64,000 nt of DNA from Pigmentiphaga sp. NML030171 (GTDB lineage Bacteria > Pseudomonadota > Gammaproteobacteria > Burkholderiales > Burkholderiaceae_B): assembly GCF_002188635.1 (NCBI RefSeq), contig NZ_NINX01000033.1, forward strand, positions 124,001 to 188,000, written 5' to 3'. Within the stretch, counting starts at the first letter, position 1, and the number at the start of each line of letters is the position of its first letter. A program made the position numbers and the translations under genes. Below, piece after piece: positions 27,920 to 47,875 of the stretch. The notes beneath the pieces are model-generated. The model was not told the DNA's origin. It saw only the letters and a list, made by a program, of their open reading frames with translations, and searched no databases.

Positions 27920-28072
27920 CCCCCCTACGCGCTTCGCGCGCCCCCCAGGGGACGATGCGAGTGGACCGGAAGGGAAGTCCACCCCCAAGCGGCCTTCGGC
28001 CGCTCCCCCTCAAGGGGGCGGCGCTGGCGGACCGGCAAAGCCGGATCCGCGGCACCCTGGATCTGGACTCCC
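27920..28072 (+). repeat. Dispersed multi-hairpin repeat, copy 1 (two variants in tandem)
   Basis: Starts 9 bp upstream of fmt. It reads as variant I (CCCCCCTACGCGC, TTC loop, GCGCG, then CCCCCCAGGGG) truncated after GGACCGG, then variant II (CCACCCCCAAGCGGCC, TTC, GGCCGCT, CCCCCTCAAGGGGGCGG), ending in the third hairpin GGACCGGCAAAGCCGGATCC and CCCTGGATCT. Closely similar sequence recurs at 28148-28393, 40102-40184, 40870-40944 and 47593-47875. Confidence 0.85.
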
Positions 28073-28144
28073 TGCTTGGCGCGCGGCCTTGCACGCCGCT
28101 TCCTGCGCGGGCGGGATGGGATTATTGATTGTCGGAGGGGGAAT

Positions 28145-28198
28145 GATACATGGTCCCCCCCTACGCGCTTGATACATGGTCCCCCCCCCTACGCGCTT
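28145..28198 (+). repeat. Tandem duplication at the repeat edge
   Basis: GATACATGGT followed by a C-run and CTACGCGCTT occurs twice in a row (28145-28170 and 28171-28198), differing only in the length of the C-run. It duplicates the flank plus the first bases of the dispersed repeat, and looks like slippage or an end duplication. Confidence 0.8.
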
Positions 28199-28393
28199 GC
28201 GCGCGCCCCCCAGGGGGCGATGCGGGTGGACCGGCAAAGCCGGATCCACCGCATCCTGGGTCTTCGTGGGGTATCTCGGTGCGAAGCACCGCATGCTTGC
28301 TTTGATCTTAGGCGCCGCGGATCCGGCTTTGCCGGTCCGCTAGCGCCGCCCCCTTGAGGGGGAGCGGCCGAAGGCCGCTTGGGGGTGGGCTTC
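28148..28393. repeat. Dispersed multi-hairpin repeat, copy 2 (inverted pair)
   Basis: A forward variant I copy (28179-28267) faces an inverted variant II copy (28309-28393) whose outer end touches the def stop codon at 28395. Between them is a small hairpin GGTGC-GAA-GCACC (28278-28290). The two arms can pair over long stretches of the GGATCCGGC/GCCGGATCC hairpin region. Read from def, the inverted copy is the first thing after the gene. Confidence 0.85.
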
Positions 28394-28394
28394 C

Positions 28395-28895
28395 CTAGAC
28401 CTTTTCCAGCTTGCGCAGCTTGGTCTTGATGCGGCTTTGCTTGAGGGGGGAGAGGTATTCGACGAAGACCTTGCCTTCCAGGTGGTCGAGTTCGTGCTGG
28501 ACGCAGACGGCCAGGATGCCTTCGGCGTCGAATTCGTAGCGTTCGCCCTGTTCGTTGGTGGCCTCGACCTTGATGCGGGCGGCGCGCTTGACCTCGTCGT
28601 AGATGCCGGGCACCGACAGGCAGCCTTCCTCGTAGACCTGGGTTTCCTCGCTCTTCCAGGTGATGACCGGGTTGATCAGGACGAGCAGGTCGTCGTTGTT
28701 CTCGGACACGTCGATGACCACGATGCGCTCGTGGATATCGACCTGGGTGGCGGCCAGCCCGATACCCGGCGCGGCGTACATGGTCTCGGCCATGTCGCGG
28801 ACGATGCGGCGGATGCGGTCGTCGACCACCGCCACCGGCTTGGCTTTCTTGTGCAGCCTTGCGTCGGGATAGTGAAGAATGGGTAGCAATGCCAT
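28395..28895 (-). CDS. def: Peptide deformylase
   Basis: A 166-residue metalloenzyme that removes the formyl group from nascent proteins. All three motifs are intact: GIGLAATQ (44-51), EGCLSVP with metal ligand Cys92, and HELDH with His134, His138 and catalytic Glu135. It is the first gene of the minus-strand housekeeping operon, divergent from dprA. Confidence 0.97.
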
Positions 28896-29020
28896 GATCG
28901 TGTTGCCGTTGCCCCTCGGACAGGGGCCATTTCAGAATAAATGGGGCCGGTTGGCCGGGATCCAAGGGGCAAGATACCACAGCTTCCCGGCGAGTCCGGC
29001 CGCCCGCGCGAGGCGGGATC

Positions 29021-29049
29021 GCGGGGATCCCCGCTATTTATATAGCGGG
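29021..29049. other. Two overlapping, mutually exclusive hairpins upstream of dprA
   Basis: GCGGGGATCCCCGC (29021-29034) is a perfect 14-bp palindrome. The right half of it also pairs in CCCGCTAT-TTAT-ATAGCGGG (29030-29049), an 8-bp stem. Both cannot form at once on one strand. It lies in the 273-bp gap between def and dprA, 120 bp before the dprA ATG. I see no other gene in this gap. Confidence 0.5.
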
Positions 29050-29168
29050 AGGCGAGCGCCGTCCCTGGCCATTGGACGCGCCGGCGCGCGATCCGTTCAG
29101 CGGCGAGGCGGGACATCGATGTCCTGCCCGGGGCTACCCTGCGGCGCCTGCCATGTTTAGATAGCGGC

Positions 29169-30278
29169 ATGCCTCTCGCCCACACTCCGGAAGAACTGTC
29201 CGCCTGGCTGCGGCTTACCCTCGAACCCGGCATCGGACCGGCCACCGCGCGCGAACTGTTGCAAGCGGTCGGATTGCCGCAGCGCCTTTACAGCCTGTCC
29301 CGCGACGAACTGGCGGCCCTGTTGCCGCCACCGCTGGCCGCGCAGCTGGCCCGTTCGCCGTCGCCCCAGCACGCCGCCACCCTGGAACGCACCCTGCGCT
29401 GGGCCGAACACCCCGGCCACCACCTCCTGACGCTGGCCGACGCCGGCTATCCCCGGGCGCTGCTGGCCATCCACGACCCGCCGCCGCTGCTCTACCTGGC
29501 GGGCGATCCGTCCCGGCTGTCGCCGCAGGCCATCGCCATCGTCGGGGCCCGCCACGCCACGCCCGACGGCATGGCGAACGCGCGCGCCTATGCCCGCCAC
29601 CTGGCGCAGCGGGGCTGGTGCATCGTCAGCGGCCTGGCGCTGGGCATAGACACCGCCGCCCACGAAGGCGCGCTCGAGGCCGGCGCCGCCGGCGGCGGCA
29701 CGGTCGCGGTGGTGGGCACGGGGGTCGACGTGGTCTATCCGCCCCGCAACCGAGGCCTGGCCGAGCGCATCGCCGCGCAAGGAGCCATCGTGTCCGAGTT
29801 CCCGCTGGGCCTGCCCGCGCTGCCGCACCAGTTCCCCCGGCGCAACCGGCTGGTGGCCGGACTGACGCAAGGCACGCTGGTGGCCGAGGCGGCCGCACGC
29901 AGCGGCTCGCTGATCACCGCCCGGCTGGCGGCCGACGCCGGCCGCGAGGTCTTCGCCATCCCGGGATCCATCCATTCGCCGCTGTCGCGAGGGTGCCACG
30001 CCCTGATCCGGCAGGGCGCCAAGCTGGTGGAATCGGCGCAGGACATCCTGGACGAGCTGGGCGCCGGTTCCGGATCCGCAGCGCCGCCGCCGGAACCGGC
30101 GCTGCCGCGGGATCCGGTGCTGGCGGGCATGGGCTACGGCCCCGTCCACGTCGACGCGCTGGCGGCGCGCACGGGCCTGGCGGTCCCGCAATTGCAGGCC
30201 AGGCTGCTCGAGCTGGAGCTGCGGGGGCTGATCGCCCGGCTCGACGGCGGCCGCTACCAGGCCACGCCCATGCGCTGA
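29169..30278 (+). CDS. dprA: DNA processing protein for natural transformation
   Basis: A 369-residue ssDNA-binding protein that loads RecA on incoming DNA. It has an N-terminal SAM-like/HhH region (LTLEPGIGPATARELLQAVG), the Rossmann-like DprA core with AIAIVGARHATPDGMANARA, SGLALGIDTAAHEGAL, VVGTGVDVVYPPRNRGL, FPRRNRLVAGLTQGTLVAEA and GREVFAIPGSIHSPLSRGCH, and a C-terminal winged-helix domain (about 310-369). It is complete. The start at 29169 gives the usual length. Confidence 0.95.
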   Translation: MPLAHTPEELSAWLRLTLEPGIGPATARELLQAVGLPQRLYSLSRDELAALLPPPLAAQLARSPSPQHAATLERTLRWAEHPGHHLLTLADAGYPRALLAIHDPPPLLYLAGDPSRLSPQAIAIVGARHATPDGMANARAYARHLAQRGWCIVSGLALGIDTAAHEGALEAGAAGGGTVAVVGTGVDVVYPPRNRGLAERIAAQGAIVSEFPLGLPALPHQFPRRNRLVAGLTQGTLVAEAAARSGSLITARLAADAGREVFAIPGSIHSPLSRGCHALIRQGAKLVESAQDILDELGAGSGSAAPPPEPALPRDPVLAGMGYGPVHVDALAARTGLAVPQLQARLLELELRGLIARLDGGRYQATPMR

Positions 30279-30284
30279 ATCCCC

Positions 30285-30303
30285 TTGTGTGCCGCGCACA
30301 CAA
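30285..30303. terminator. Perfect hairpin after dprA
   Basis: TTGTGTGC-CGC-GCACACAA, an 8-bp stem with a 3-base loop, 6 bp past the dprA stop. There is no T-run, so it is either a weak terminator or a protein site for the downstream smg promoter. Confidence 0.4.
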
Positions 30304-30329
30304 CGCATGAGCAGCAAATGCCGGGCAAT

Positions 30330-30358
30330 TTGCCTAGGGATGCAATTCAGCGTACAGT
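30330..30358 (+). promoter_or_regulatory. Candidate sigma70 promoter for smg
   Basis: TTGCCT (30330-30335), a 17-bp spacer and TACAGT (30353-30358), with the smg ATG at 30383. The leader would be short. Assigned by consensus fit and spacing only. Confidence 0.4.
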
Positions 30359-30382
30359 GGATCCAGCCTTACACGCTGACTT

Positions 30383-30841
30383 ATGTTCGAAATTCTCGTC
30401 TACCTCTTCGAGAACTACTACACGCCGGAAGCGTGCCCGGACCCGGAAACGCTGGCGCGCAAGCTTGCCGCCGCCGGCTTCGAAGACGATGAAATCGACG
30501 ACGCCCTGACCTGGCTGTCCGGGCTTGCCGAATCCACTCATCGTTGTGTCGATCTCGCCCTTGTTCCCAGTAGCGGCTGTCGTATCTACGCCGAGGCCGA
30601 GTATCGCCAGCTCGGATCGGAAGCGATCGGCTTCATCGCCTTCCTGGAGTCGGCGGGCGTGCTGTCGTCCCCCCTGCGCGAGATTGTGATCGACCGCGCC
30701 TTCGCGCTGGGCGAGGCCCCCGTGCCCCTGGACAAGCTGAAGATCATCGTCCTGATGGTGCTGTGGAGCCAGGAAACCGAGATCGACAACCTGATCCTGG
30801 AAGAACTGCTGGAAGACGGCAGCGCCCGGCAGCTGCATTAG
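30383..30841 (+). CDS. smg: Smg family protein
   Basis: A 152-residue acidic cytoplasmic protein of the Smg/DUF494 family, which usually sits next to dprA and topA/topB in proteobacteria. It opens MFEILVYLFENYY and contains the family segment DDEIDDALTWLSGLAE and the C-terminal LDKLKIIVLMVLWSQ. Role unknown; the conserved neighbourhood suggests a DNA-related function (inference). Confidence 0.93.
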   Translation: MFEILVYLFENYYTPEACPDPETLARKLAAAGFEDDEIDDALTWLSGLAESTHRCVDLALVPSSGCRIYAEAEYRQLGSEAIGFIAFLESAGVLSSPLREIVIDRAFALGEAPVPLDKLKIIVLMVLWSQETEIDNLILEELLEDGSARQLH

Positions 30842-30890
30842 CCCCCCTACGCGCTGACGCGTGCCCAGTATGGTGAGCCCCCAAGGGGGC
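30842..30890 (+). repeat. Degenerate trace of the dispersed repeat
   Basis: Directly after the smg stop: CCCCCCTACGCGCTGACGCG and then CCCCCAAGGGGGCCGGGGG. It keeps the C-run, the TACGCGC start and a C5/G5 hairpin but lacks the GGACCGGC hairpin. The placement next to a stop codon matches the better copies. Confidence 0.5.
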
Positions 30891-30981
30891 CGGGGGTTGT
30901 TTTCGATGGAAACAAGTCTTAATCCGGGGCGCTTCGAAAGGCGGAGCCGGCGTTTTTTGGCTTGGTGGGCATAGGCCCGAC

Positions 30982-31011
30982 TTGCGCTGCTTAAAAATCC
31001 CCCCGTATCAT
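30982..31011 (+). promoter_or_regulatory. Candidate sigma70 promoter for topB
   Basis: TTGCGC (30982-30987), an 18-bp spacer and TATCAT (31006-31011), about 50 bp before the topB ATG. It lies in a locally AT-richer stretch within the 222-bp smg-topB gap. Confidence 0.4.
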
Positions 31012-31063
31012 CCGGCGCTTTGACGCACTATTTGTTCGCGTCGGCTCCGTCAACTGGAAGTCA

Positions 31064-33715
31064 ATGGGCAAAACTCTGATCATCGCCGAGAAACCTTCGG
31101 TCGCGCTGGACATTTCCCGCGCGCTGGGCGGGTTCAAGCGCGAAGGCGATTATTTCGAAAGCGACGACTACGTGCTTTCGTCCAGCGTCGGGCACCTGCT
31201 CACCCTCGTGGCGCCCAACGATCCGGTCAAGGGCAAGTGGAGCTTCACCCATCTGCCGGTGATTCCTCCCGAGTTCGAGCTGGGGCCGGCCGACAAGCGC
31301 TCGGAAGAGCGCCTGCGCCTGCTGGTGCGGCTGATCAAGCGCAAGGACGTGGACGCCCTGATCAACGCCTGCGACGCGGGACGCGAAGGCGAGTTGATCT
31401 TCCGCTACATCGCCCAGTACGCAAAGACCAACAAGCCCATCAAGCGGCTGTGGCTGCAATCGATGACGCAGCAGGCCATCCGCGACGCCTTCGCCGACCT
31501 GCGCTCGGACGCCGCGCTGCAGCCACTGGAAGCCGCGGCGCGCTCGCGCGCCGAGGCCGACTGGCTGGTGGGCATCAACGGCACGCGGGCGATGACGGCC
31601 TTCAACAGCAAGGACGGCGGCTTCTTCAAGACCACGGTGGGCCGGGTGCAGACGCCCACGCTGGCCATCGTGTCCGAGCGCGAGGAGCGCATCCGCCAGT
31701 TCGTGCCGCGCGACTACTGGGAAGTGCGCGCGCAGTTCGTCGCCGCCGCCGGCCTGTACGAGGGCCGCTGGTTCGACCCCAAGCACGTCAAGGATCCGCA
31801 GGACCCCGAGAAGCGCGAATCGCGCCTGTGGAGCAAGGCCGCCGCCGAGTCGGTCGTGGCGGCCTGCCGCGAGCGCACGGGTTCGGTCACGGAAGAATCC
31901 AAGCCGTCCACCCAGTTGTCCGGACTGCTGTACGACCTGACCACGCTGCAACGCGAGGCCAACTCGCGCTTCGGCTTCTCGGCCAAGACCACGCTGGCGC
32001 TGGCCCAGACCCTGTACGAACGCCACAAGGCGCTGACCTACCCGCGTACCGACTCGCGCTACCTGCCCGAGGACTACCTGGGCACGGTGCGCCAGACCAT
32101 GCAGACGCTGGCCGCCAGCCGGCCCGGCTATGCGCCGTTCGCCTCGAAGATCCTGGACAGCGGCTGGGTCAAGCCCAATCGCCGCGTGTTCGACAACAAG
32201 AAGGTGTCGGACCACTTCGCCATCATCCCGACGCTGCAGGCACCGCGCGAGTTGAGCGAGGCCGAGGCCAAGCTGTACGACCTGGTGGTCAAGCGCTTCC
32301 TGGCGGTGTTCTTCCCGGCGGCCGAATTCCTGGTGACGACCCGGATCACCGAGGTCGCGGGCCACCATTTCAAGACCGAGGGCAAGGTCCTGGTCAATCC
32401 GGGCTGGATGGCCGTCTACGGCCGCGACGCGCAGGGCGAGGACGCCAACCTGGTGCCGGTCGCCCCTGGCGAGCAGGTGCGTACCGAGGAAGTCGAGGCC
32501 GTGGGCCTGGTGACCAAGCCGCCCGCCCGCTACACGGAAGCGACGCTGCTGTCGGCCATGGAAGGCGCGGGCAAGCTGGTCGACGACGAAGAGCTGCGCG
32601 AGGCCATGTCCGCGCGCGGCCTGGGTACGCCGGCCACGCGCGCGGGCATCATCGAAGGGCTGATCAACGAACTCTACCTGCGCCGCGAAGGCCGCGAGCT
32701 GGTGCCCACCGCCAAGGCGCGCCAGTTGATGACGCTGCTGTCGGGCCTGGACGTGGACGAGCTGACCTCGCCCGAGCTGACCGGCGAGTGGGAGCACAAG
32801 CTGTCGCAGATCGAACGCGGCCAGTTGGCGCGCGAGGCCTTCATGCGCGAGATCGCGCAGATGACCCAGGTCATCGTCAAGCGCGCGAAGGAATACGACC
32901 GCGACACCGTGCCTGGCGACTATGCCACCCTGACCACGCCGTGTCCGAAATGCGGCGCCGTGGTCAAGGAGAACTACCGGCGCTACGCCTGCACCGCCTG
33001 CGATTTCTCGATCAGCAAGCACCCGGGCGGGCGCACCTTCGAACTGCAGGAAGTCGAGGAATTGCTGGCCAAGCGCGAGATCGGCCCCCTGAACGGCTTC
33101 ATCAGCAAGATGGGCCGACCCTTCTCGGCCATCCTGCGCATCACCGACGACTACAAGCTGGAGTTCGACTTCGGCCAGGCCGACGAGGAATCCTCCGAAG
33201 CCGTGGACTTCTCCGGCCAGACGCCGGTGGGCCCGTGCCCGAAATGCGGCTCGAACGTGTTCGAACACGGCATGAGCTTCGTGTGCGAGAAGTCGGTCGG
33301 GCCGCAACGTTCGTGCGACTTCCGCTCGGGCAAGGTCATCCTCCAGCAGGAAATCACGGCCGAGCAGATGGCCAAGCTGCTGACCGAAGGACGCACCGAC
33401 CTGCTGCAGAACTTCGTCTCCAGCCGCACCAATCGCAAGTTCAAGGCCTTTCTGGTCCGGCAGCCCGATGGCAAGATAGGCTTCGAGTTCGAGCCGCGCC
33501 CCGCCAAGGGCGGCAAGGCGGGCGAGGATGCGCCGGCGGCCCGGAAGACGGCGGCAAAGAAAGCCGCCAGCCAGGACGAAGCCGTCGCGGCGCCGGCGAA
33601 GAAGGCCCCCGCCAAGAAGGCGGCGGCCAAGAAAGCCGCGCCGCGCAAGACCGCCGCCAAGAAAGCCCCCGCGAAGAAAACCGCCAGGAAGGCGGCCGCG
33701 AAGACCTCCAGCTGA
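31064..33715 (+). CDS. topB: DNA topoisomerase III with lysine-rich C-terminal tail
   Basis: An 883-residue type IA topoisomerase that passes and decatenates single strands. The Toprim domain is at the N-terminus (KTLIIAEKPSVALDI, acidic motif ACDAGREGELIFRY). The catalytic tyrosine is Tyr326 in ALTYPRTDSRYLP. Two zinc-ribbon-like units follow (CPKCGAVV and CTAC; CPKCGSNVF), and the last about 70 residues are a histone H1-like tail of repeated AKKA/APAKK units, far more basic than E. coli TopB. The SET-domain gene starts 14 bp after its stop. Confidence 0.96.
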   Translation: MGKTLIIAEKPSVALDISRALGGFKREGDYFESDDYVLSSSVGHLLTLVAPNDPVKGKWSFTHLPVIPPEFELGPADKRSEERLRLLVRLIKRKDVDALINACDAGREGELIFRYIAQYAKTNKPIKRLWLQSMTQQAIRDAFADLRSDAALQPLEAAARSRAEADWLVGINGTRAMTAFNSKDGGFFKTTVGRVQTPTLAIVSEREERIRQFVPRDYWEVRAQFVAAAGLYEGRWFDPKHVKDPQDPEKRESRLWSKAAAESVVAACRERTGSVTEESKPSTQLSGLLYDLTTLQREANSRFGFSAKTTLALAQTLYERHKALTYPRTDSRYLPEDYLGTVRQTMQTLAASRPGYAPFASKILDSGWVKPNRRVFDNKKVSDHFAIIPTLQAPRELSEAEAKLYDLVVKRFLAVFFPAAEFLVTTRITEVAGHHFKTEGKVLVNPGWMAVYGRDAQGEDANLVPVAPGEQVRTEEVEAVGLVTKPPARYTEATLLSAMEGAGKLVDDEELREAMSARGLGTPATRAGIIEGLINELYLRREGRELVPTAKARQLMTLLSGLDVDELTSPELTGEWEHKLSQIERGQLAREAFMREIAQMTQVIVKRAKEYDRDTVPGDYATLTTPCPKCGAVVKENYRRYACTACDFSISKHPGGRTFELQEVEELLAKREIGPLNGFISKMGRPFSAILRITDDYKLEFDFGQADEESSEAVDFSGQTPVGPCPKCGSNVFEHGMSFVCEKSVGPQRSCDFRSGKVILQQEITAEQMAKLLTEGRTDLLQNFVSSRTNRKFKAFLVRQPDGKIGFEFEPRPAKGGKAGEDAPAARKTAAKKAASQDEAVAAPAKKAPAKKAAAKKAAPRKTAAKKAPAKKTARKAAAKTSS

Positions 33716-33728
33716 GCCGTAGAGCCCA

Positions 33729-39120: not shown

Positions 39121-40101
39121 ATGAAGAATCATCGACTTCTCGCCTGCGCCACCGCCATCCTGGCCCTGGGCGCCACCGCCGCCCACGCCAAGGACGACGC
39201 CGCGTCATGGCCTACCCGGCCGGTGCGGCTGATCGTGCCGTTCCCGGCCGGCGGCAGCACCGACGTGGTCGCGCGCCTGATCGCCGAGCGGCTGGGCCAG
39301 AAGCTCGGCCAGCAGTTCGTCGTGGACAACCGTCCGGGCGCGGCCGGCAACATCGGCACCGACCAGGTCGCCAAGGCCTCGCCCGACGGCTACACGCTCA
39401 CGCTGACGACCTCCGGGCCGCTGGCCAACAACAAGTACCTGTACAAGTCCATGCCGTACGACCCGGCCAAGGACCTGACTCCCATCGTGCTGGTGGGCGA
39501 GATCCCGCTGGTGGTCGTGTCCACCGACAAGACCCCGGCCAAGAACCTGAAGGAATTCATCGCGCTGGCCAAGGCCGCGCCGGGCAAGTATTCCATCGGC
39601 AATCCGGGCAACGGCACCATCGGGCACCTGGCCTATGAACTGCTGCGGCACAATACCCGGACCGACTTCCTGGGCGTGCCGTACAAGGGCGACACGCCGG
39701 CCATGACGGACCTGCTGGGCGGCTCCATCCAGGCCATCGTCGCGCCCATCACGGCCTTCATCCCGCAGATCCAGAGCGGCAAGATGAACGGCCTGGCGGT
39801 GACCTCCAAGAAGCGTTTCCCCGGCACGCCCGACGTGCCCACCGCGGTCGAGCAGGGCTTCGACGTCGAGGCCTCGGTCTGGTTCGCCGTCGCGGGCCCC
39901 GCCGGCATGCCGCGTCCCATCGTCGACAAACTCAACCGCGAGATCAACCTCGTGCTGAACTCGCCCGAGGGCCGGGCCAAGCTCGAGCAGTTCGGCGCGG
40001 TCGTGGGCGGCGGTTCGCCCGAGCAGCTGGATTCGCTGATGAAGGTCGAAAGCGCGAAGTGGAAGCGGATCATCGAGGACGCCAATATCAAGCTGGATTA
40101 G
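39121..40101 (+). CDS. Bug-family (TctC-like) periplasmic solute receptor
   Basis: A 326-residue receptor with a Sec signal (MKNHRLLACATAILALGATA, cleavage near AHAKDD) and the family motifs WPTRPVRLIVPFPAGGSTD, VVDNRPGAAGNIGT, SPDGYTLTL and GVPYKGDTPAMTDLLGG. It lies 39 bp after the hydratase beta subunit, so it probably binds that pathway's carboxylate substrate. The stop is followed at once by a copy of the dispersed repeat. Confidence 0.93.
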   Translation: MKNHRLLACATAILALGATAAHAKDDAASWPTRPVRLIVPFPAGGSTDVVARLIAERLGQKLGQQFVVDNRPGAAGNIGTDQVAKASPDGYTLTLTTSGPLANNKYLYKSMPYDPAKDLTPIVLVGEIPLVVVSTDKTPAKNLKEFIALAKAAPGKYSIGNPGNGTIGHLAYELLRHNTRTDFLGVPYKGDTPAMTDLLGGSIQAIVAPITAFIPQIQSGKMNGLAVTSKKRFPGTPDVPTAVEQGFDVEASVWFAVAGPAGMPRPIVDKLNREINLVLNSPEGRAKLEQFGAVVGGGSPEQLDSLMKVESAKWKRIIEDANIKLD

Positions 40102-40184
40102 CCCCCCTACGCGCTTCGCGCGCCCCCCCACAGGGGGGCGGCACTGGCGGACCGGCAAAGCCGGATCCGCTGTGCCCTGGGTCT
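40102..40184 (+). repeat. Dispersed multi-hairpin repeat, copy 3
   Basis: Begins on the base after the Bug stop codon: CCCCCCTACGCGC-TTC-GCGCG hairpin, CCCCCCCACAGGGGGG hairpin, then GGACCGGCAAAGCCGGATCC and CTGTGCCCTGGGTCT. All three hairpins are present. It separates the receptor from the flavin reductase gene. Confidence 0.88.
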
Positions 40185-40247: not shown

Positions 40248-40868
40248 ATGAGCGGTTTCGTTACGTTGAAGACCGAGGGCATGAGCACCGAGGAGGCCTA
40301 TCGGCTGATCGTGGGCTGCGTGGCGCCCCGGCCGGTGGCGTGGATCACCACGCAGGATGAATCGGGACGGGTCAATGCCGCGCCGTTCAGTTCGTACAAC
40401 TACGTGGCGCACAGCCCGCCGATGCTGGCGGTGAACATCGGCTCGCGCAAGGGCGAGTTGAAGGACACGGCACGCAACATCGTCGAGACGCGCGAGTTCG
40501 TGGTCAACGTGGCCACGGAAGCGACGCTGGAGCTGATGCATGCGTCGGGCGCGGACTACCCGCCCGAGATCGGCGAGCCCGAGGCGCTGGGCATCGAGCT
40601 GGCGCCCAGCACGGTGGTGCGGCCGCCGCGCATTCCCGCCACGCCGATCCAGATGGAATGCCGGCTCGAGCACGTGCTGCCGCTGGGACGGGGCCTGAAC
40701 ACGCTCTACATCGGCGAAGTGGTGGCCTTCCATCTGTCCGAGGCCATATTCAACGGCCGGCACATCGATGCCGTGGCGATGCGGCCCATCGCCCGGCTGG
40801 GCGGACCGTACTACGCGGGGCTGGGCGAGATCTTCCATCGGCCGATGCTGCAGGCGCCGCCGATCTGA
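40248..40868 (+). CDS. Flavin reductase-like FMN-binding split-barrel protein
   Basis: A 206-residue protein of the flavin reductase/HpaC-like superfamily. The conserved FMN-contact stretch is YRLIVGCVAPRPVAWITTQD, then NAAPFSSYNYVAHSPPMLAV, KDTARNIVETREFVVNVAT and ECRLEHVLPLG. Members give reduced flavin to monooxygenases or are oxidoreductases of unknown substrate. No flavin monooxygenase partner lies beside it. Both sides carry copies of the dispersed repeat. Confidence 0.87.
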   Translation: MSGFVTLKTEGMSTEEAYRLIVGCVAPRPVAWITTQDESGRVNAAPFSSYNYVAHSPPMLAVNIGSRKGELKDTARNIVETREFVVNVATEATLELMHASGADYPPEIGEPEALGIELAPSTVVRPPRIPATPIQMECRLEHVLPLGRGLNTLYIGEVVAFHLSEAIFNGRHIDAVAMRPIARLGGPYYAGLGEIFHRPMLQAPPI

Positions 40869-40869
40869 T

Positions 40870-40944
40870 CCCCCCTACGCGCTTCGCGCGCCCCCCAGGG
40901 GGCGGCACTGGCGGACCGGCGGAGCCGGATCCGCTGTGCCCTGG
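40870..40944 (+). repeat. Dispersed multi-hairpin repeat, copy 4
   Basis: Starts 2 bp after the flavin reductase stop. The order is the same as in copy 3 (CTACGCGC-TTC-GCGCG, CCCCCCAGGGGGCG, GGACCGGC-GGA-GCCGGATCC, CTGTGCCCTGG), with a GGA loop in place of AAA. It is about 90% identical to copy 3 by eye. Confidence 0.88.
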
Positions 40945-40999
40945 AGACCAACGGGCTGGCGAAGTTGGGGGTTCTTAATTTTGTGACAAGGACATACTG

Positions 41000-41755: not shown

Positions 41756-41786
41756 CGCGGCTCCCTCTCAAGCAAAGGTGAAGTCC

Positions 41787-42650
41787 ATGACTGTCCAACA
41801 ACCGCGGCCCGCGACCTATGCCGCGCACTACGACACCGCTCCGCAGCAACAGCAGGCCGGCGCGCGCACCTGGCTGACCCGGGGCGCCAACTTCGTCGTC
41901 GCCGTCTCGCAGGTCGAGGCGGGAGCCGTGCTGGCGCGCGAGGCCAACCCCGACGAATACTTCGTCTTCGTGCACACCGGCGGCGCGCGCATCCAGGCGG
42001 GTTCCGAGCAGGTCGACGCCGCTCCCGAGACCGTGACCATCGTTCCGCCGGGTGCGAGCCGCGTCGAGGCCACCGCCGCGGGCACCATCGTGCGCGTGTT
42101 CTCCAACCGCGCCTCGGACCTGGCGCAGGCTTCGGTCAACCAGGAGATCTACGCCGACGGCGCGCCCGAAGTCGCGCCGCTGGTGCCATGGCCCGATCCC
42201 CCCGCCGGCTTCAAGCTGCGCCACTACGTGCTGGCCGAGCACGTGCGGCCCGACAGCAACATGCGCATCTTCCGCAGCACCAACCTGATGGTCAATTTCC
42301 TGGCCAAGCGCCTGGTGCCGCGCGACGTGCACAAGCTCAGCCCGCACACCCACGCCGACTTCGAACAGGCCTCGCTGGCGATCCAGGGCACTTACGCGCA
42401 CCACCTGCGCTGGCCGTGGACGCCGGACATGGACATGTGGAAAGAGGACGAGCACGTCGAAATCGGCAGCCCGTCCGTCACGGTCATTCCCGCGAAGGTG
42501 CTGCATACCAGCCGCAACGTCAGCCAGGGCGATTGCTGGCTGATCGACATCTTCGGCCCGCCGCGCATGGACTTCTCCAGCAAGCCGGGACTGGTCTGCA
42601 ACGCGGACGAGTACCCCATGCCCGCGCCCGCCACGGCCGCCGCGGCCTAG
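41787..42650 (+). CDS. Two-domain cupin-like protein, function unknown
   Basis: A 287-residue protein with two beta-rich halves. The N-terminal half has ANPDEYFVFVHTGGARIQAG and the C-terminal half LSPHTHADFEQASLAIQGTY with a His-x-His (HTH), followed by VIPAKVLHTSRNVSQGDCWL, resembling cupin metal sites (HxH...E...H). The first half lacks clear metal ligands. Either a dioxygenase-like enzyme or an isomerase or binding protein is possible. It follows the aldolase on the same strand, starts at the ATG 41787, and converges on the IclR gene with a 4-bp overlap. Confidence 0.7.
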   Translation: MTVQQPRPATYAAHYDTAPQQQQAGARTWLTRGANFVVAVSQVEAGAVLAREANPDEYFVFVHTGGARIQAGSEQVDAAPETVTIVPPGASRVEATAAGTIVRVFSNRASDLAQASVNQEIYADGAPEVAPLVPWPDPPAGFKLRHYVLAEHVRPDSNMRIFRSTNLMVNFLAKRLVPRDVHKLSPHTHADFEQASLAIQGTYAHHLRWPWTPDMDMWKEDEHVEIGSPSVTVIPAKVLHTSRNVSQGDCWLIDIFGPPRMDFSSKPGLVCNADEYPMPAPATAAAA

Positions 42651-43414
42651 AGCCTGGCGAGGTCCTCCGAGATGCCGCGGGAGACCTCCTGCAACTGTTC
42701 CAGATAGCGCTCGACGACCTGTTCGTTGGTGAGCGTGGAGGCGAACCACGTCATGCCGAACGAGGCCACCACATGCTTGCCGTCGAACACCGGCACGGCC
42801 AGGGTGCCGGATACCGGGCGCACGGCGGGATCGCGCAGCGCGTAGCCCTGCGCGCGCGTGATCTCTATCATCCGCCTGACCGCCTCCCGGTCCTGCGCCG
42901 GCTCGTCCTCGGGGTTCTTCGATTGGCGCAGCAGCGCGAGTATGGTCTCGCGCTCATCCTCTTCGCAGAAGGCCAGGTAGGCCCGGCCGATGGCGCGGCT
43001 GACCAGGCTCAGGCGCATGTTGATGGTCGAATGCAGCAGCGACAGCGGCGAATGGGGAATGGTGCTGTAGCGCACCACCATGGCATCGGTATCGAACACG
43101 GCGATGGCCAGCGGCCACTTGATGGCCTCGGTCAGCGCGTCCAGGCGCGGCCGGGCCGCTTCGACGATGCGCGGCTCGCTGTGATAGCCCGACGACAGCG
43201 TATTGACCAGCGACGTCAGGTAGTACGCCCCGTACTGCGGCGCATGGCGCACCAGTCCCTTGGACGCGAGCGACTCAAGAAGACGTATCAGCGATGGCTT
43301 GGGGATGCCCGTCTGCTTGTACAGTACGTCCAGGGTCGATACCGGCTGGCGGTTCAGGGCCTGCAGCAGCTCGATGGCACGGACAACGGCTTGGACGGGC
43401 GGAAAGGAAGGCAC
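42647..43414 (-). CDS. IclR-family transcriptional regulator (MhpR-like)
   Basis: A 255-residue regulator. The winged helix is PVQAVVRAIELLQALNRQPV to LYKQTGIPKPSLIRLLESLA (about residues 6-50); the effector domain has SLVSRAIGRAYLAFCEEDER and VPVFDGKHVVASFGMTWFAS. MhpR-type proteins activate aromatic catabolism genes in response to pathway intermediates. It lies between the aldolase/cupin genes and an amidohydrolase. A repeated palindromic motif (43419-43486) lies just upstream. Confidence 0.9.
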   Translation of the reverse strand: MPSFPPVQAVVRAIELLQALNRQPVSTLDVLYKQTGIPKPSLIRLLESLASKGLVRHAPQYGAYYLTSLVNTLSSGYHSEPRIVEAARPRLDALTEAIKWPLAIAVFDTDAMVVRYSTIPHSPLSLLHSTINMRLSLVSRAIGRAYLAFCEEDERETILALLRQSKNPEDEPAQDREAVRRMIEITRAQGYALRDPAVRPVSGTLAVPVFDGKHVVASFGMTWFASTLTNEQVVERYLEQLQEVSRGISEDLARL

Positions 43415-43418
43415 GCGG

Positions 43419-43486
43419 ACCTCCGTACGGAAAGGACGCCGGCCGGCGATTATCGCATTGCCGGATGCGTTCCAACCTCCGTACGG
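43419..43486. promoter_or_regulatory. Pair of 12-bp direct repeats, possible operator
   Basis: ACCTCCGTACGG occurs at 43419-43430 and again at 43475-43486, 56 bp apart start to start. Each contains the palindrome CCGTACGG. They fill the 87-bp gap between the IclR start and the amidohydrolase stop. Spacing near five helical turns suits one regulator binding twice on the same face. Confidence 0.5.
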
Positions 43487-43501
43487 CCGTCCTGGTGAAA
43501 A

Positions 43502-44461
43502 TCAGCGGCGGGCGCCGCCCTTCACGAACACGCGCTTGCCGGTGTCATGCCAGACCGCGCGCTTTTCCTCTTCGGTCAGCAGGACCGAGGCGTCGATCAT
43601 GCGCTGGACCATTTCCTTGTAGGTGCCCGACGAGGTGCCGATGTCCGAGCCCCACATGATGCGGTCGGCGCCGAACAGGTCGACCGCGCGGCGCAGCACC
43701 TGCTCGGCCGGCACGTCGGCCTCGCGGTACTCGTCCAGGTTGATCGAGGTGAACTTGAAGAAGATGTTGTGCTCGTGCGCCAGCTTCTCGAAGCGCTCGT
43801 CCAGGCCGAAGTGTTCCTCGGTGGCCTCGGGCTCCAGCAGGTGGTCCAGCACGATGCGCACGTTCGGATAGCGGCGCGCCAGTTCGATGATGGTCGGCAC
43901 CGACGGACCGCCGCCGCCCACCGCCAGCACTTCCAGGTCGATCACCAGGCCGAACTCCTCGGCCACGTCCCAGGTCTTGAGCGCCTGCGGCGAATTCAGC
44001 CACGGCATGCTGCCATCGGGCTGGCGGCCGCCGAACAGGCGCACGCCCGCCAGGCCGTTCTTCTCGATGTAGCTGCGCACCAGGCCCGGCGTGCCGGCAT
44101 CCTCGGCGTCCAGGATGACCACCGCCGAGAAGATGTCGGGATGGGCGTCGGACGAATCCAGGATGTAGCTGTTGTCGTAGCGGTAGATCATGCGCTTCTG
44201 CACGGCCACCGCGCCGTCGACGTTTTCTTCCTTCATCCAGACCAGCATGCGCGCCACGTCGGGCACTTCGTTGATCGGATTGGGGCCGTGCTTGCCGCCC
44301 GGCTTGCCGATCACGCCCGGGGCGCGCGGCGGCGCGTCGGCGGCGCGCTTCATGGGATTGCGCGGATAGCGCACCTGGTCATCCGCCACCAAGTGGGCGT
44401 GCGAATCGAACAGCAGCGGGCGAGTGCCGGCGGCCGACGGGGCTTGCTTGTCTTGGGTCAT
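43502..44461 (-). CDS. Amidohydrolase family protein (TIM-barrel hydrolase)
   Basis: A 319-residue member of the amidohydrolase-2 group, which includes decarboxylases such as ACMSD and lactonases such as LigI. Metal-site landmarks: LLFDSHAHLVAD (HxH near residue 20), VRIVLDHLLEPEA (His on strand 5/6) and DRIMWGSDIGTS (Asp). It starts MTQDKQAP with no signal peptide, so it is cytoplasmic. It is divergent from the TetR gene across a region with two palindromes. Substrate unknown; 2-pyrone-type lactone hydrolysis or decarboxylation are family options. Confidence 0.87.
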   Translation of the reverse strand: MTQDKQAPSAAGTRPLLFDSHAHLVADDQVRYPRNPMKRAADAPPRAPGVIGKPGGKHGPNPINEVPDVARMLVWMKEENVDGAVAVQKRMIYRYDNSYILDSSDAHPDIFSAVVILDAEDAGTPGLVRSYIEKNGLAGVRLFGGRQPDGSMPWLNSPQALKTWDVAEEFGLVIDLEVLAVGGGGPSVPTIIELARRYPNVRIVLDHLLEPEATEEHFGLDERFEKLAHEHNIFFKFTSINLDEYREADVPAEQVLRRAVDLFGADRIMWGSDIGTSSGTYKEMVQRMIDASVLLTEEEKRAVWHDTGKRVFVKGGARR

Positions 44462-44533
44462 ATCGAAAACTCTACGTGTTTACAGCGGGACTTTATCGCC
44501 AGCCTGCCCCCTCCGCACCCGATATTCTCGAAC

Positions 44534-44550
44534 TTTTCGGTGTCCGAAAA
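44534..44550. promoter_or_regulatory. 17-bp palindrome upstream of the amidohydrolase gene
   Basis: TTTTCGG-TGT-CCGAAAA, 7-bp arms with a 3-base centre, 73 bp before the amidohydrolase start. Its half-site differs from the TetR-side operator at 44600-44625, so a second regulator (perhaps the IclR protein) may bind here. Confidence 0.5.
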
Positions 44551-44576
44551 CTTGTGGCCGAACAGGAATCGGGCCC

Positions 44577-44625
44577 ATTCAAACAAAAATTTAAAAAAAG
44601 CGATTCAAATTTCTGTTTGAATCGC
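44577..44625. promoter_or_regulatory. TetR operator region with nested inverted repeats
   Basis: GCGATTCAAA-TTTCTG-TTTGAATCGC (44600-44625) has perfect 10-bp arms. An additional half-site ATTCAAACAAAAATTT (44577-44592) pairs with AAATTTCTGTTTGAAT (44607-44622), one mismatch in 16. The region is sharply AT-rich and ends 32 bp before the TetR GTG. Three TTCAAA half-sites suggest two bound dimers. Confidence 0.65.
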
Positions 44626-44657
44626 CGATACTACGCCGGACTACTGGATCCTCCATC

Positions 44658-45323
44658 GTGAACCTGCTCGACGACGACACCTCCACCCGCTCCCGCATCG
44701 TGCTGGCCGCCCTGCGCGTCTTCGCCACCCGGGGATTCGAGGCCGCCTCGCTGCGCGAGATCACGTCCGCCGCTCAGGTGAACATCGCCGCCATCCACTA
44801 CCACTTCGGCTCCAAGGACGCGCTGGTGCAGGAAGTGCTGCGCGTGGTGTCCGAGCCCATCAACCGCATGCGGCGCGAGGCCCTGGCCCGGGTGCCGGCG
44901 CACCGCGAACCGACGATGGAAGAAGTCGTGGAAGCGCTGATCGCACCGCCCGTGCGGCTGAGCTTCGACGCCACCGGCGAATGGCGGCTGCTGATCCGGT
45001 TGCTGATCCAGGCCCGCGCGGTGCCCCGCGCCAGCACGAACGCCGCGATCTTCGAGCAGTACGACGCGCTGGCGGCCGACTTCGTCGACGCCCTGATGGC
45101 CGCCCAGCCGTCGCTGGGCCGCGAGGAAGCCTACTGGCGCTACGCCTTCGCCATCGGCGCCATGATGTACATCGTCAGCGACGCCGACGAGACCTATCAC
45201 CGCCTGCATCGCATCTCCGGCGGGCTGTGCGACACCGACGACCCCGAACGCATCGTCGCCCAGCTCGTCGCCTTCATCGCCGCCGGCATGCGGGCAGCCG
45301 CCCCGGCCGGCACACCGCTGTGA
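44658..45323 (+). CDS. TetR-family transcriptional regulator
   Basis: A 221-residue repressor. The N-terminal helix-turn-helix is RSRIVLAALRVFATRGFEAA then LREITSAAQVNIAAIHYHFG (about residues 11-50), the classic TetR form with IHYHFGSKDAL. The C-terminal helical ligand domain resembles the CecR/YbiH-type group (RVVSEPINRMRREAL). The start is GTG at 44658. It probably represses itself and the divergent amidohydrolase, or the downstream cyclase-Bug pair, through the inverted repeats just upstream. Confidence 0.91.
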   Translation: MNLLDDDTSTRSRIVLAALRVFATRGFEAASLREITSAAQVNIAAIHYHFGSKDALVQEVLRVVSEPINRMRREALARVPAHREPTMEEVVEALIAPPVRLSFDATGEWRLLIRLLIQARAVPRASTNAAIFEQYDALAADFVDALMAAQPSLGREEAYWRYAFAIGAMMYIVSDADETYHRLHRISGGLCDTDDPERIVAQLVAFIAAGMRAAAPAGTPL

Positions 45324-45343
45324 CTTCCCTCCGGATACACGAC

Positions 45344-46129
45344 ATGACCCGCCGCATCATCGACCTGTCGGTCGCCCTCGAAGACAAGCCCACTTCGCCG
45401 GCGCACCACCGCCCCCAGATCAGCTACGTCGACCACGACCAGTCCTGGGAACTCTTCTCCAAGCTCTTTCCCGGCATCGGCCCCGACGACCTGCCCGAGG
45501 GCAAGGCCTGGGCGGTGGAGCGGGTTTCGCTGTCGACCCACGCCGGCACCCACATGGACGCGCCGTGGCACTACCACCCCACGACCGACCATGCGCTGCA
45601 GGAAGGCGGCCGGCCCGCGCCCGGCATCGACGAAGTCCCGCTGGACTGGTGCCTGAAGCCCGGCGTCAAGCTCGACTTCCGCCACATGGAAGCGGGCTAC
45701 GTGGTCACGCCCGCCGACATCCAGGCCGAGCTGAAGCGCATCGGCCATACCCTCCAGCCGCTGGACATCGTCGTGGCCAACACCCGCGCCGGTGCGCGCT
45801 ACGGCCAGGAGGACTATTGGGAAAGCGCCTGCGGCTTCGGCCGCGCCGCCACGCTGTGGCTGCTGGAGCAGGGGGTACGGGTGGTCGGCACCGACTCCTA
45901 CAGCTGGGACCCCGCCTTCAAGTTCGTGGTCGAGCGCTACGAGCGCGACCGCGACCCTTCCATCATCTGGGAAGGCCACAAGGCGGGGCGCGACATCGGC
46001 TACTTCCAGATGGAGAAGCTGACCAACCTGGACCAGTTGCCGTCCCATGGCTTCACCATCAGTTGCTTCCCCATCAAGATCAAGCACGGATCGGCCGGCT
46101 GGTGCCGCACCGTCGCCATTCTCGATTGA
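45344..46129 (+). CDS. Cyclase-family metal hydrolase (KynB-like)
   Basis: A 261-residue protein of the cyclase family, which includes bacterial kynurenine formamidase and isatin hydrolase. The metal-site signature HxGTHxDxPxH is intact as HAGTHMDAPWH (His66, His70, Asp72, His76). RIIDLSVALEDKP at the N-terminus and GYVVTPADIQAELKR are also typical. It hydrolyses an amide or lactam-like bond; longer than KynB (about 210), so the substrate may differ. It lies 20 bp after the TetR stop. Confidence 0.87.
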   Translation: MTRRIIDLSVALEDKPTSPAHHRPQISYVDHDQSWELFSKLFPGIGPDDLPEGKAWAVERVSLSTHAGTHMDAPWHYHPTTDHALQEGGRPAPGIDEVPLDWCLKPGVKLDFRHMEAGYVVTPADIQAELKRIGHTLQPLDIVVANTRAGARYGQEDYWESACGFGRAATLWLLEQGVRVVGTDSYSWDPAFKFVVERYERDRDPSIIWEGHKAGRDIGYFQMEKLTNLDQLPSHGFTISCFPIKIKHGSAGWCRTVAILD

Positions 46130-46180
46130 CCCGCGAGGCGCGCGACGCCTCGTCCAAGACAACGATCCCGGAGACTCCCC

Positions 46181-47155
46181 ATGACCTTCCTTTCCTGCGC
46201 CCGCCTGGGCGCCGCCCTCGCGCTGGCCGCCTGCGCAGTACCCGCCGCCGCGCAGGCGCCTGCCTCGTACCCCGACCGGCCCGTCCACGTCGTCGTGCCG
46301 TTCCCGCCGGGCGGCATCGTCGACAACGTCACCCGCAACCTGGGCGCGCGCCTGTCGGCCGCGCTGGGCCAGACCTTCATCGTGGAGAACAAGGCCGGAG
46401 CCGGCGGCTCGATCGGCGCCGCCCACGTCGCCAAGGCCGCGCCCGACGGCTACACCCTGCTGGCCGCCTTCGACACCCACGCCGTCAACCCGCTGCTATA
46501 CAAGCTCAGCTTCGACTCCGACAAGGACCTGGCGCCGGTCGCCTTGATCGGCACCTCGCCGCTCATCCTGGTCGTCCATCCCTCGGTGCCCGCCCGGACC
46601 GTGCCTGAGCTGGTCGCGCTGGCCAAGGCCAAGCCCGACGCGCTGAACTACGCCTCCACCGGCGCCGGCAGCTCCAACCAGCTGACCGCGGAACTGTTCA
46701 AGGCCACCGCCGGTGTCGAGATGAACCACGTGCCCTACAAGGGCGGCGCACCCGCCATCACCGACGTGCTGGGCGGCCGGGTGCAGGTCATGTTCGTCAG
46801 CGCCAGCTCGGTACTGGCCCATATCAAGGCCGGCAAGATGCGGGCCCTGGCCGTCACCACCCGGGAACGCATCCCGGCCCTGCCCGACGTGCCGTCCATC
46901 AGCCAGTTCTACCCCGATTTCGAGGCCCGCTCGTGGATAGGCCTGCTGGCTCCGGCCGGCACGCCCCCCGCCACCGTCTCGCGCCTGAACGCCGAGGTCT
47001 ACCGCGCCTTGCAGACGCCCGAGATGCGGACGTTCTTCGACGCCCAGGCCATCCAGCCCGGCAGCGGGTCGCCCGAGCAATTCGGCGCATTCCTGCGGAA
47101 CGAGACCAAAAAGTGGGGCGAAATCATCAAAAAACAGGACATCCGGGTGGAATGA
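46181..47155 (+). CDS. Bug-family (TctC-like) periplasmic solute receptor
   Basis: A 324-residue receptor with a Sec signal (CARLGAALALAACAVPAAAQ) and family motifs YPDRPVHVVVPFPPGGIVD, IVENKAGAGGSIG, APDGYTLLA and NHVPYKGGAPAITDVLGG. It follows the cyclase-family gene by 51 bp, so it likely presents the compound that the hydrolase opens. A stable hairpin follows its stop. Confidence 0.93.
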   Translation: MTFLSCARLGAALALAACAVPAAAQAPASYPDRPVHVVVPFPPGGIVDNVTRNLGARLSAALGQTFIVENKAGAGGSIGAAHVAKAAPDGYTLLAAFDTHAVNPLLYKLSFDSDKDLAPVALIGTSPLILVVHPSVPARTVPELVALAKAKPDALNYASTGAGSSNQLTAELFKATAGVEMNHVPYKGGAPAITDVLGGRVQVMFVSASSVLAHIKAGKMRALAVTTRERIPALPDVPSISQFYPDFEARSWIGLLAPAGTPPATVSRLNAEVYRALQTPEMRTFFDAQAIQPGSGSPEQFGAFLRNETKKWGEIIKKQDIRVE

Positions 47156-47168
47156 GACGGCCGGGAAA

Positions 47169-47194
47169 CCCGCGTGGCGCAAGACCCACGCGGG
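47169..47194 (+). terminator. Hairpin after the Bug gene
   Basis: CCCGCGTGG / CCACGCGGG, a 9-bp stem with an 8-base loop, 14 bp past the stop, followed at a distance by TTTT (47206-47209). Likely transcription end of the TetR-cyclase-Bug unit. Confidence 0.5.
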
Positions 47195-47208
47195 CGGCTT
47201 GCAAGTTT

Positions 47209-47238
47209 TGAGAATATTATCAATAATTAATCTCATTA
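47209..47238. promoter_or_regulatory. Candidate Fur box and promoter of bfd
   Basis: AT-rich stretch TGAGAATATTATCAATAATT onwards, 45 bp before the bfd ATG. Its complement contains TGATAAT, a perfect Fur half-site, followed by a poorer second half with non-standard spacing. Fur control of bfd genes is common, which supports but does not prove the call. Confidence 0.45.
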
Positions 47239-47282
47239 CGACGTCCACTGCGGCGCCCAACCGCGCCGCAACGAGTTCCGCC

Positions 47283-47588
47283 ATGTACGTTTGTGTCTGC
47301 AACGCCATCACCGAACGCCAGATCCGCAGCAGCGTGGAAGCTGGCGCGACTACCCTGGCCGACCTCCAGTTCGACCTGGGCGTGGCGACCTGCTGCGGCT
47401 CCTGCGCCGACACCGCCTGCCAGTACCTGCCGGCCGGCGCCAGCGCCTGCGAGCACGCCTACGAAGCGTCCATCTCGGCCGCCAACGGCCGCACCGAAGC
47501 CACCGAACTCCCCCCGCCCCGCGCCACGACGCGCCGCTTCCCCATCCACGTCGTCGGCGCCGGCGCCGGCGCCGCCAAGGCGGCGTAG
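47283..47588 (+). CDS. bfd: Bacterioferritin-associated ferredoxin
   Basis: A 101-residue [2Fe-2S] protein that reduces bacterioferritin to release iron. The four cluster cysteines are visible: CVC at residues 4-6 (MYVCVCNAIT) and CGSC (in VATCCGSCAD). The fold after CNAITERQIRSSVEAGATTL is typical. It is longer than E. coli Bfd (64 residues) by a C-terminal tail rich in Pro, Arg and Ala. The start is the ATG at 47283. bfr lies downstream beyond a large repeat. Confidence 0.9.
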   Translation: MYVCVCNAITERQIRSSVEAGATTLADLQFDLGVATCCGSCADTACQYLPAGASACEHAYEASISAANGRTEATELPPPRATTRRFPIHVVGAGAGAAKAA

Positions 47589-47592
47589 GGGT

Positions 47593-47875
47593 CCCCCCCC
47601 TACGCCCTTCGGGCGCCCCCCAGGGGGCGAAACCGGCGGACTGGCAAAGCCAGATCCGCGGTTTCCTGGGTCTAGTACCTGTTTCTTGGCACGTCACACT
47701 GTTGCTACCGCTGGCAGCCAGCGATAGCAACAATGCTACGCGCCAAGACAGCGGTACTAGACCCAGGATGCGGTGGATCCGGCTCCGCCGGTCCACCCGC
47801 ATCGCCCCCTTGAGGGGGCCCGCGTCAGCGGGTAGGGGGTGGGCTTTCCTTGCGCGCGGCAGCGCGTAGGGGGGA
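47593..47875. repeat. Dispersed multi-hairpin repeat, copy 5 (inverted pair with cruciform core)
   Basis: A forward copy (47593-47675; CCCTACGCCC-TTC-GGGCG and so on) starts 5 bp after the bfd stop and faces an inverted copy (47753-47875). Between them, CCTGGGTCTAGTACC (47665-47679) pairs perfectly with GGTACTAGACCCAGG (47753-47767), and the centre 47701-47731 is a near-perfect hairpin: GTTGCTA / TAGCAAC and CGCTGGC / GCCAGCG with a one-base centre and one mismatch. This fills the 397-bp bfd-bfr gap almost entirely. Confidence 0.85.

What the first reader, a model, noticed from the sequence alone, without database searches (positions are those of the whole stretch)
27920..47875. Dispersed three-hairpin intergenic element placed right after stop codons
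Copies at 27920-28072, 28148-28393, 40102-40184, 40870-40944 and 47593-47875 (with a trace at 30842-30890) share a fixed order: a C-run plus a hairpin capped by TTC or cTTCGg (TACGCGC-TTC-GCGCG, or AAGCGGCC-TTC-GGCCGCTT in a second variant), a CCCCC/AGGGGG hairpin, and GGACCGGC-AAA-GCCGGATCC, ending in CCCTGGGTCT. In most cases the element begins 1-5 bp after a stop codon. That fits a REP-like mRNA 3' element or terminator, in two sequence variants of one plan. I do not recognise a named family.
Basis: partly seen in the sequence, partly recalled or inferred. Interest (0 to 1): 0.7.

Follow-up and report, generated by a model that had tools for sequence, protein, structure and literature searches.

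The report
REP-like hairpin element after stop codons
A short three-hairpin DNA repeat is scattered through the genomes of Pigmentiphaga and related bacteria, very often placed just behind a gene's stop codon, where it probably affects how the message is finished or decays; it belongs to a known kind of repeat but has an unusual build and placement.

Summary
A ~79-nt element (C-run, hairpin 1, C5/G5 hairpin 2, long hairpin 3) is dispersed: 225 matches to a degenerate core genome-wide, reversed-pattern control 0. The genus is Pigmentiphaga. Related copies occur in Bordetella, Achromobacter, Verticiella, Caldimonas, Polaromonas, Variovorax. The fold has strong two-sided covariation (306 cells against 79 shuffled). 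Placement is striking: 49 of 99 usable own copies start at a co-oriented stop codon, against 11.4±2.9 at random; likewise 36 of 61 in other Pigmentiphaga and 25 of 42 in other genera. Hairpin 1 mostly begins 8-18 nt after the stop. None of 48 stop-linked copies holds a U-tract terminator; 5 have one downstream. RAYT transposase is absent from nearly all Pigmentiphaga searched. Facing pairs with fixed spacers build ~250-bp palindromes. At orthologous sites the place is often kept while the copy is exchanged. Best reading: a RAYT-independent, REP-like 3'-UTR element at the edge of the terminating ribosome; function is inferred, not shown. It is probably the family catalogued in Bordetella as Bor/Bor-1; BRE stays open.

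The parts
27920..27968 (+). truncated copy (hairpins 1 and 2, start of hairpin 3), antisense, 8 nt before the fmt start codon
   Evidence: R1 31.8 bits; sequence; gene calls
27982..28064 (+). full copy, variant with hairpin 1 AAGCGGCC-TTC-GGCCGCT
   Evidence: R1 87.1 bits
28155..28170 (+). fragment: C-run plus first half of hairpin 1, duplicated just before the next copy
   Evidence: read from sequence
28184..28263 (+). full copy, GATGCG-type hairpin 3; left arm of a facing pair (39-nt spacer)
   Evidence: R1 99.2 bits; pair
28303..28385 (-). full copy, AAGCGGCC variant, 9 nt after the def stop codon (28395, minus strand); right arm of the pair
   Evidence: R1 84.7 bits; gene calls
30842..30866 (+). 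trace: truncated hairpin 1 directly after the stop codon of the DUF494 gene
   Evidence: sequence and relatives at this site; below the model's threshold
40102..40184 (+). full copy, 0 nt after TAG of the gene 39121-40101
   Evidence: R1 99.6 bits; fold z -4.26
40870..40948 (+). full copy, 1 nt after TGA of the gene 40266-40868
   Evidence: R1 95.6 bits
47595..47673 (+). full copy, GAAACC-type hairpin 3, 6 nt after TAG of the gene 47283-47588 (weak match to bacterioferritin-associated ferredoxin); left arm of a facing pair
   Evidence: R1 101.0 bits
47674..47758 (.). 85-nt palindromic spacer of the facing pair (CTAGTACC..TTCTTGG..CGCTGGCAGCCAGCG..CCAAGA..GGTACTAG)
   Evidence: sequence; spacer class shared by other pairs
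47759..47840 (-). full copy, GATGCG-type hairpin 3; right arm of the pair, not after a stop codon
   Evidence: R1 88.0 bits
47852..47874 (-). fragment of a further hairpin 1 module, joined to the copy by AAGGAAAGCCCA
   Evidence: read from sequence

Best explanation
A dispersed, REP-like repeat family of Burkholderiales, present without a RAYT transposase in nearly all Pigmentiphaga genomes searched, that is carried largely in mRNA 3' regions. SHOWN: the three-hairpin plan, its covariation, its sense orientation at stop codons, and its tight placement after them. INFERRED: it is co-transcribed with the gene before it. The C-run leaves roughly a ribosome edge of single strand after the stop, and hairpin 1 then stands at the front of the terminating ribosome, with two more hairpins behind it. 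As reported for E. coli REPs within 15 nt of a stop (ribosome stalling), this would slow termination or tune output of the gene, while the hairpin stack also blocks 3'-to-5' exonucleases and keeps bare RNA short. Copies are exchanged at fixed sites, most simply by gene conversion between copies (inferred).
For: Stop-codon placement in three sets without shared loci, 49 of 99, 36 of 61 and 25 of 42, against random 11.4, 8.6 and 7.3 in the same intergenic spaces (no duplicates or overlaps among the named loci). 5' end beside the start codon of a divergent gene is rare (3, 2 and 1). First pair of hairpin 1 mostly 8-18 nt after the stop, median 11-12; 37 of 49, 24 of 36 and 16 of 25 at 0-15 nt. 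Covariation 306 cells against 79 shuffled, 0 of 500. Unconstrained consensus fold agrees. No U-tract terminator in 48 stop-linked copies, a separate one downstream in 5. No Y1_Tnp match in the own genome and in 9 of 10 other genus members. In the multi-genus set G-U exceeds A-C outside helix 2, 26 to 12. Precedent for REPs within 15 nt of a stop: PMC12306157, abstract and passages read, citing Liang et al. 2015 (not read).
Against: 50 of 99 own copies are not at a stop codon; 31 of these are arms of facing pairs, 19 are not, and some lie before start codons, as at fmt. In the own set G-U does not exceed A-C outside helix 2 (8 to 17, from the per-pair table), so selection on the sense RNA strand is not shown. 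Two-sided changes can also arise by template switching in palindromes or by gene conversion. The gap at 0-6 nt after the stop is trivial, because the C-run cannot hold a stop codon. No transcription data were available. The gene caller was home-made.
Confidence: 0.5

Rival explanations
1. Inert or selfish repeat. Copies spread by an unknown route (or past mobility) and survive mainly at gene ends because insertions elsewhere are harmful; the stop-codon spacing reflects target preference, not function.
For: Facing pairs with fixed spacers (39, 83-85, 105-109, 165-166 nt, one of 61) look like units copied whole. Tandem array of 4 x 86 bp in G015. Copy exchange at sites. Patchy spread: one genus member has no match and one draft has 4.
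Against: Simple purging predicts copies anywhere in an intergenic space, yet starts pile up within 12 nt of the stop. No mobiliser found: only RAYT was looked for, and it is absent in nearly all Pigmentiphaga searched. 2 of 72,556 plasmid records and 0 of 50,697 phage records matched.
Confidence: 0.3
2. DNA-level element (cruciform, gyrase or nucleoid-protein site), like some E. coli BIMEs.
For: Stem changes in the own set show no G-U excess (8 to 17 outside helix 2); ~250-bp palindromes made by facing pairs, two folded as RNA at -203 and -235 kcal/mol.
Against: A DNA role does not need sense orientation and 8-18 nt spacing from a stop; in the multi-genus set G-U exceeds A-C 26 to 12.
Confidence: 0.12
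3. Intrinsic transcription terminator.
For: GC-rich hairpins after stop codons; 10 of 25 classified facing pairs lie between convergent genes.
Against: No U-tract terminator in any of 48 stop-linked copies; true U-tract terminators follow 5 of them; 30 of 48 single copies lie between two genes co-directed with them.
Confidence: 0.08

Closest known systems
Bor repeats / Bor-1 of Bordetella (Petrillo 2006, PMC1590033; Cozzuto 2008, PMC2267715; passages read)
   Same: Intergenic stem-loop repeat in Bordetella with predicted RNA structure; Bor-1 models are 93 nt (128 members, B. pertussis) and 117 nt (196 members, B. bronchiseptica); the 2006 authors liken Bor repeats to E. coli REPs and suggest mRNA stabilisation.
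   Different: The Bor consensus is only in a figure, so identity is not proven. Stop-codon spacing, three-hairpin covariation, facing pairs and copy exchange were not described in the passages read.
BRE, Betaproteobacterial repeat element (Hot 2011, PMC3110155; abstract, passages and section 14 read)
   Same: 75-91 bp, GC-rich, mostly intergenic, in Bordetella and Comamonadaceae, tandem in places; tandem copies of the present element exist in G015.
   Different: BRE mean GC 69% against 65-83% per copy here, mostly above 70; 22 BREs in B. bronchiseptica. No element at 12 lexA-model loci, but those do not match the BRE context, so this is undecided.
E. coli REP / PU-BIME
   Same: Dispersed palindromic 3'-region repeat, part of it close to stop codons (PMC12306157); gene conversion proposed for it by Higgins 1988 (title seen in a reference list).
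   Different: Different sequence, three hairpins, no GTAG tag 5' of the hairpin (features of E. coli REP recalled), and no RAYT in nearly all Pigmentiphaga searched.

Membership tests
REP-like repeat (broad sense) | many dispersed intergenic palindromic copies | tested here: met
   225 core matches; of 92 cores in the own loci, 2 flagged inside a called gene
RAYT-REP / GTAG-REP system | RAYT (Y1_Tnp) gene in the genome | tested here: not met
   no match in G000, G001-G008 and G010, a fragment in G009. In one search, 7 of 15 element-bearing genomes have none (three are Pigmentiphaga already; also Verticiella, Caldimonas, A. animicus, G546) and 8 have one match each, among them Polaromonas with 81 copies and both B. 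petrii
RAYT-REP / GTAG-REP system | GTAG or CGTC tag at the 5' foot of the palindrome | tested here: not met
   no such tag conserved in A1 or in the named loci, by eye; CTAC occurs before hairpin 1 only in the main variant
Intrinsic terminator | U-tract directly after the hairpin | tested here: not met
   0 of 48 stop-linked copies
Bor-1 (Bordetella) | sequence consensus | not testable with these tools
   Bor consensus only in a figure that is not held; no Bor-1 letters in the passages read
Bor-1 (Bordetella) | intergenic structured repeat in Bordetella | tested here: met
   37 and 18 model matches in two B. petrii genomes; copies after stops in L134 and L196
BRE | copies at the lexA convergent locus | tested here: inconclusive
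   0 matches in 12 loci of the lexA model, three of them partial or weak; lexA there has other neighbours
Rfam family | match to a curated covariance model | tested here: not met
   window 26000-50000: 3 sub-threshold matches, none overlapping the copies

The most novel reading that the evidence does not exclude
A RAYT-independent REP system in which the genomic address (stop codon plus a ribosome-edge-length C-run) is what is conserved, while interchangeable three-hairpin cassettes are swapped into that address by gene conversion, giving a genome-wide set of some two hundred or more tunable translation-termination or 3'-decay elements.
Probability: 0.3. Interest if true: 0.65.

Novelty: new variant of a known kind. 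Interest (0 to 1): 0.5.

Why it matters
It would be a high-copy 3'-region element shared across several families of a large bacterial order, not matched by any Rfam 15 family in this window, with a built-in natural experiment: the same stop codons carrying different cassettes in neighbours whose flanks are 87-97% identical. That makes the old question of what REP-like elements do at stop codons, and how they are maintained without a RAYT, directly testable.

Tried and rejected
Terminator reading: rejected on the missing U-tract. RAYT-mobilised REP: rejected for Pigmentiphaga; outside it the picture is mixed, 8 of 15 genomes hold one Y1_Tnp match. G-U against A-C strand test: 62 to 17 in A2 and 20 to 19 in A3, but much of the G-U is in helix 2, where variant-2 sequences shift the alignment; outside helix 2 it is 26 to 12 in A2 and 8 to 17 in A3; undecided. 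BRE by its lexA locus: nothing found, inconclusive. Literal sequence search in papers: 0 hits. Paper searches with other words: of their listings I opened five papers, and saw no description there that matches this element letter for letter. An order-wide scan with R2 found it in 6 of 200 genomes, own included, and a pattern scan of the class in 2 of 369, own included; both are strict, so absence elsewhere is not proven. First count of stop codons (24 of 52 against 36 of 175) counted some window genes twice; recounted without the window as 21 of 48 against 27 of 118. Stop-codon-in-loop copies (first pair at -8 nt) were kept in the counts. One search used 95 of the 101 model matches (six weak ones left out; 94 usable, 48 at a stop); one search uses all 101 (99 usable, 49 at a stop). 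Of the 225 core matches 100 were listed; the 92 in contigs C1-C10 were fetched and analysed, the 8 in C11 and C12 were not.
Full report
OBSERVATION. The element is in the window as described. One copy reads C-run, hairpin 1, C5/G5 hairpin 2, a long hairpin 3 with an A bulge, then CCTGGGTCT. An alignment of 29 copies folds, without constraint, into these three hairpins. The named structure pairs 99.4% of cells, with 23 two-sided changes against 3.2 in shuffles. The 83-nt copy at 40102 folds at -53.9 kcal/mol, z -4.26. No Rfam family covers the copies (window 26000-50000).

COPY NUMBER AND KINSHIP. A degenerate 20-base core has 225 matches in the 5.86-Mb own genome (109 plus, 116 minus), and its reversed control none. 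The covariance model R1 matched all 150 candidates that were scored, so 150 is a lower bound. Contig lengths identify two genus members as P. kullae K24 and the strain SAGV5, so the genus is taken to be Pigmentiphaga. These 12 genomes were picked because they hold a core. R2 found it in 6 of 200 genomes of the order, own included, and the core pattern in 2 of 369 of the class, own included.

STRUCTURE ACROSS SPECIES. In 122 model matches from the 80 named loci (119 distinct), 18 of 24 pairs show two-sided changes, 306 cells against 79 in shuffles, and sliding the partners destroys the signal. The loci were chosen by an exact hairpin-3 core, so the low variation there is partly built in, and the alignment was fitted to the model. 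G-U against A-C in the stems is 62 to 17 in that set and 20 to 19 in the own set; outside helix 2 it is 26 to 12 and 8 to 17. So complementarity is kept, but it is undecided on which strand, and palindrome-correcting mutation or gene conversion could contribute.

PLACEMENT. Genes were called with a home-made codon model that gives 62 genes over 89% of the window. Of all 101 model matches in 60 stretches of the own genome, 99 were usable and 49 start within -20 to +12 nt of a co-oriented stop codon; random placement in the same intergenic spaces gives 11.4±2.9, maximum 22 in 2000 runs. In other Pigmentiphaga (with SAGV5 and the MAG 67-32) 77 matches, 61 usable, 36 at a stop (random 8.6±2.5); in other genera 45 matches, 42 usable, 25 at a stop (random 7.3±2.3). 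With the 5' end beside the start codon of a divergent gene lie 3, 2 and 1. The first pair of hairpin 1 is mostly 8-18 nt after the stop; in 5 own copies the stop codon is the loop of hairpin 1. Of the 50 own copies not at a stop, 31 are arms of facing pairs and 19 are not. TAG is the stop in 21 of 48 such genes against 27 of 118 others (odds ratio 2.6, p 0.009). Intrinsic terminators by a strict scan: none among 48 stop-linked copies themselves, 5 of 48 downstream (0.2 expected from shuffles).

PAIRS AND MODULES. Among the 100 listed core matches, 22 of 25 neighbours within 800 bp are facing pairs and none are back to back. With the model, 26 facing pairs have spacers of 39, 83-85, 105-109 or 165-166 nt, plus one of 61; 2 neighbours are plus-plus and 2 minus-minus. 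The commonest spacer (83-85 nt, 14 of 26) is itself largely palindromic in the pairs read, so the unit is a near-continuous palindrome of about 250 nt. Gene contexts of 25 pairs are 10 convergent, 9 plus-plus, 3 divergent and 3 minus-minus, so the pairs are not only convergent gene ends. Of 48 single copies 30 lie between two genes co-directed with them, 9 between two genes opposed to them, 7 between convergent and 2 between divergent genes. Hairpin 1 comes in at least three modules, hairpin 3 in several stem types.

SITES KEPT, COPIES EXCHANGED. Orthologous def-to-bfr regions were compared in relatives, plus loci with matching flanks. Over 41 site comparisons (14 from flank-matched loci, 27 from five window sites; in 6 of the 27 the own site holds only the trace) the 41 comparable arms have identities from 0.69 to 1.00, median 0.90; random own copies have median 0.81, and the best other own copy averages 0.95. 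19 of the 41 are at 0.88 or lower. In the 14 flank-matched pairs, whose flanks are 87-97% identical, 12 of 17 arms are at 0.87 or lower and 5 at 0.95 or higher. The arrangement differs in 15 of 41 and the other genome has no full copy in 7 of 41. The target loci were chosen for holding a core, so the share of occupied sites is biased upward. Exchange by gene conversion is inferred; repeated insertion at one site is not excluded. At def-fmt the more distant G001, G006 and G010 have short intergenic spaces and no copy.

ORIGIN. PF01797 has no match in the own genome, G001-G008 and G010; G009 has a fragment. Of 15 further searches in element-bearing genomes (three of them Pigmentiphaga already covered) 8 have one match and 7 none; Caldimonas and Verticiella have none, Polaromonas with 81 copies has one. 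Plasmids: 2 records; phages: none. Other kinds of mobiliser were not searched for.

MECHANISM. Shown: structure, orientation, spacing, exchange. Inferred: transcription with the gene before it, and action at the terminating ribosome and in 3' decay. The spacing argues for the ribosome, since an exonuclease barrier or a DNA site would not need it; E. coli REPs within 15 nt of a stop are reported to stall ribosomes (PMC12306157, abstract and passages; the primary paper was not read). Target preference of an unknown mobiliser is the main rival.

PRIOR ART. Bor repeats (26-30 bp) and the Bor-1 family (93 and 117 nt, intergenic, predicted structure) in Bordetella probably describe this family or its hairpin 3; no sequence was found in the passages read. 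BRE is similar in size, range and tandem habit but lower in GC and copy number; undecided. Searches for other descriptions.

Noticed in passing
window 27912-28394: The def-fmt gap (483 bp) holds four copies or part-copies and a fragment, in both orientations, between two co-directed genes; in G006 the same gap is 23 bp.
   Followed up: partly
L061, L075, L084, L086, L102: The stop codon of the gene is the TGA loop of hairpin 1, so the reading frame runs into the element.
   Followed up: partly
own genome, 48 genes before copies: TAG stop codons are over-represented before copies, 21 of 48 against 27 of 118; several read TAGGG facing CCCTA of the element.
   Followed up: partly
L069, L074, L090, L092, L113: Third 5' module: sequences like GGGACCCGCCTTGGGGCGGCCCGGCGCCGGG replace hairpin 1.
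   Followed up: no
L240:1575-1917: Tandem array of 4 copies with an 86-bp period in another genus of the family.
   Followed up: partly
L078:1336-1420: The spacer of this facing pair folds into a 30-bp stem with a 3-nt loop.
   Followed up: no
window 30842-31063: Site after the DUF494 gene: truncated trace here, but an antisense copy with the third module in G002 and G005.
   Followed up: partly
plasmid NC_008826.1 473959-474020: A partial match on a Methylibium plasmid lies under a feature annotated as transposase.
   Followed up: no
window 31064-33715: Topoisomerase III with a Lys/Ala-rich C-terminal tail that weakly matches the histone-like Hc2 model.
   Followed up: no
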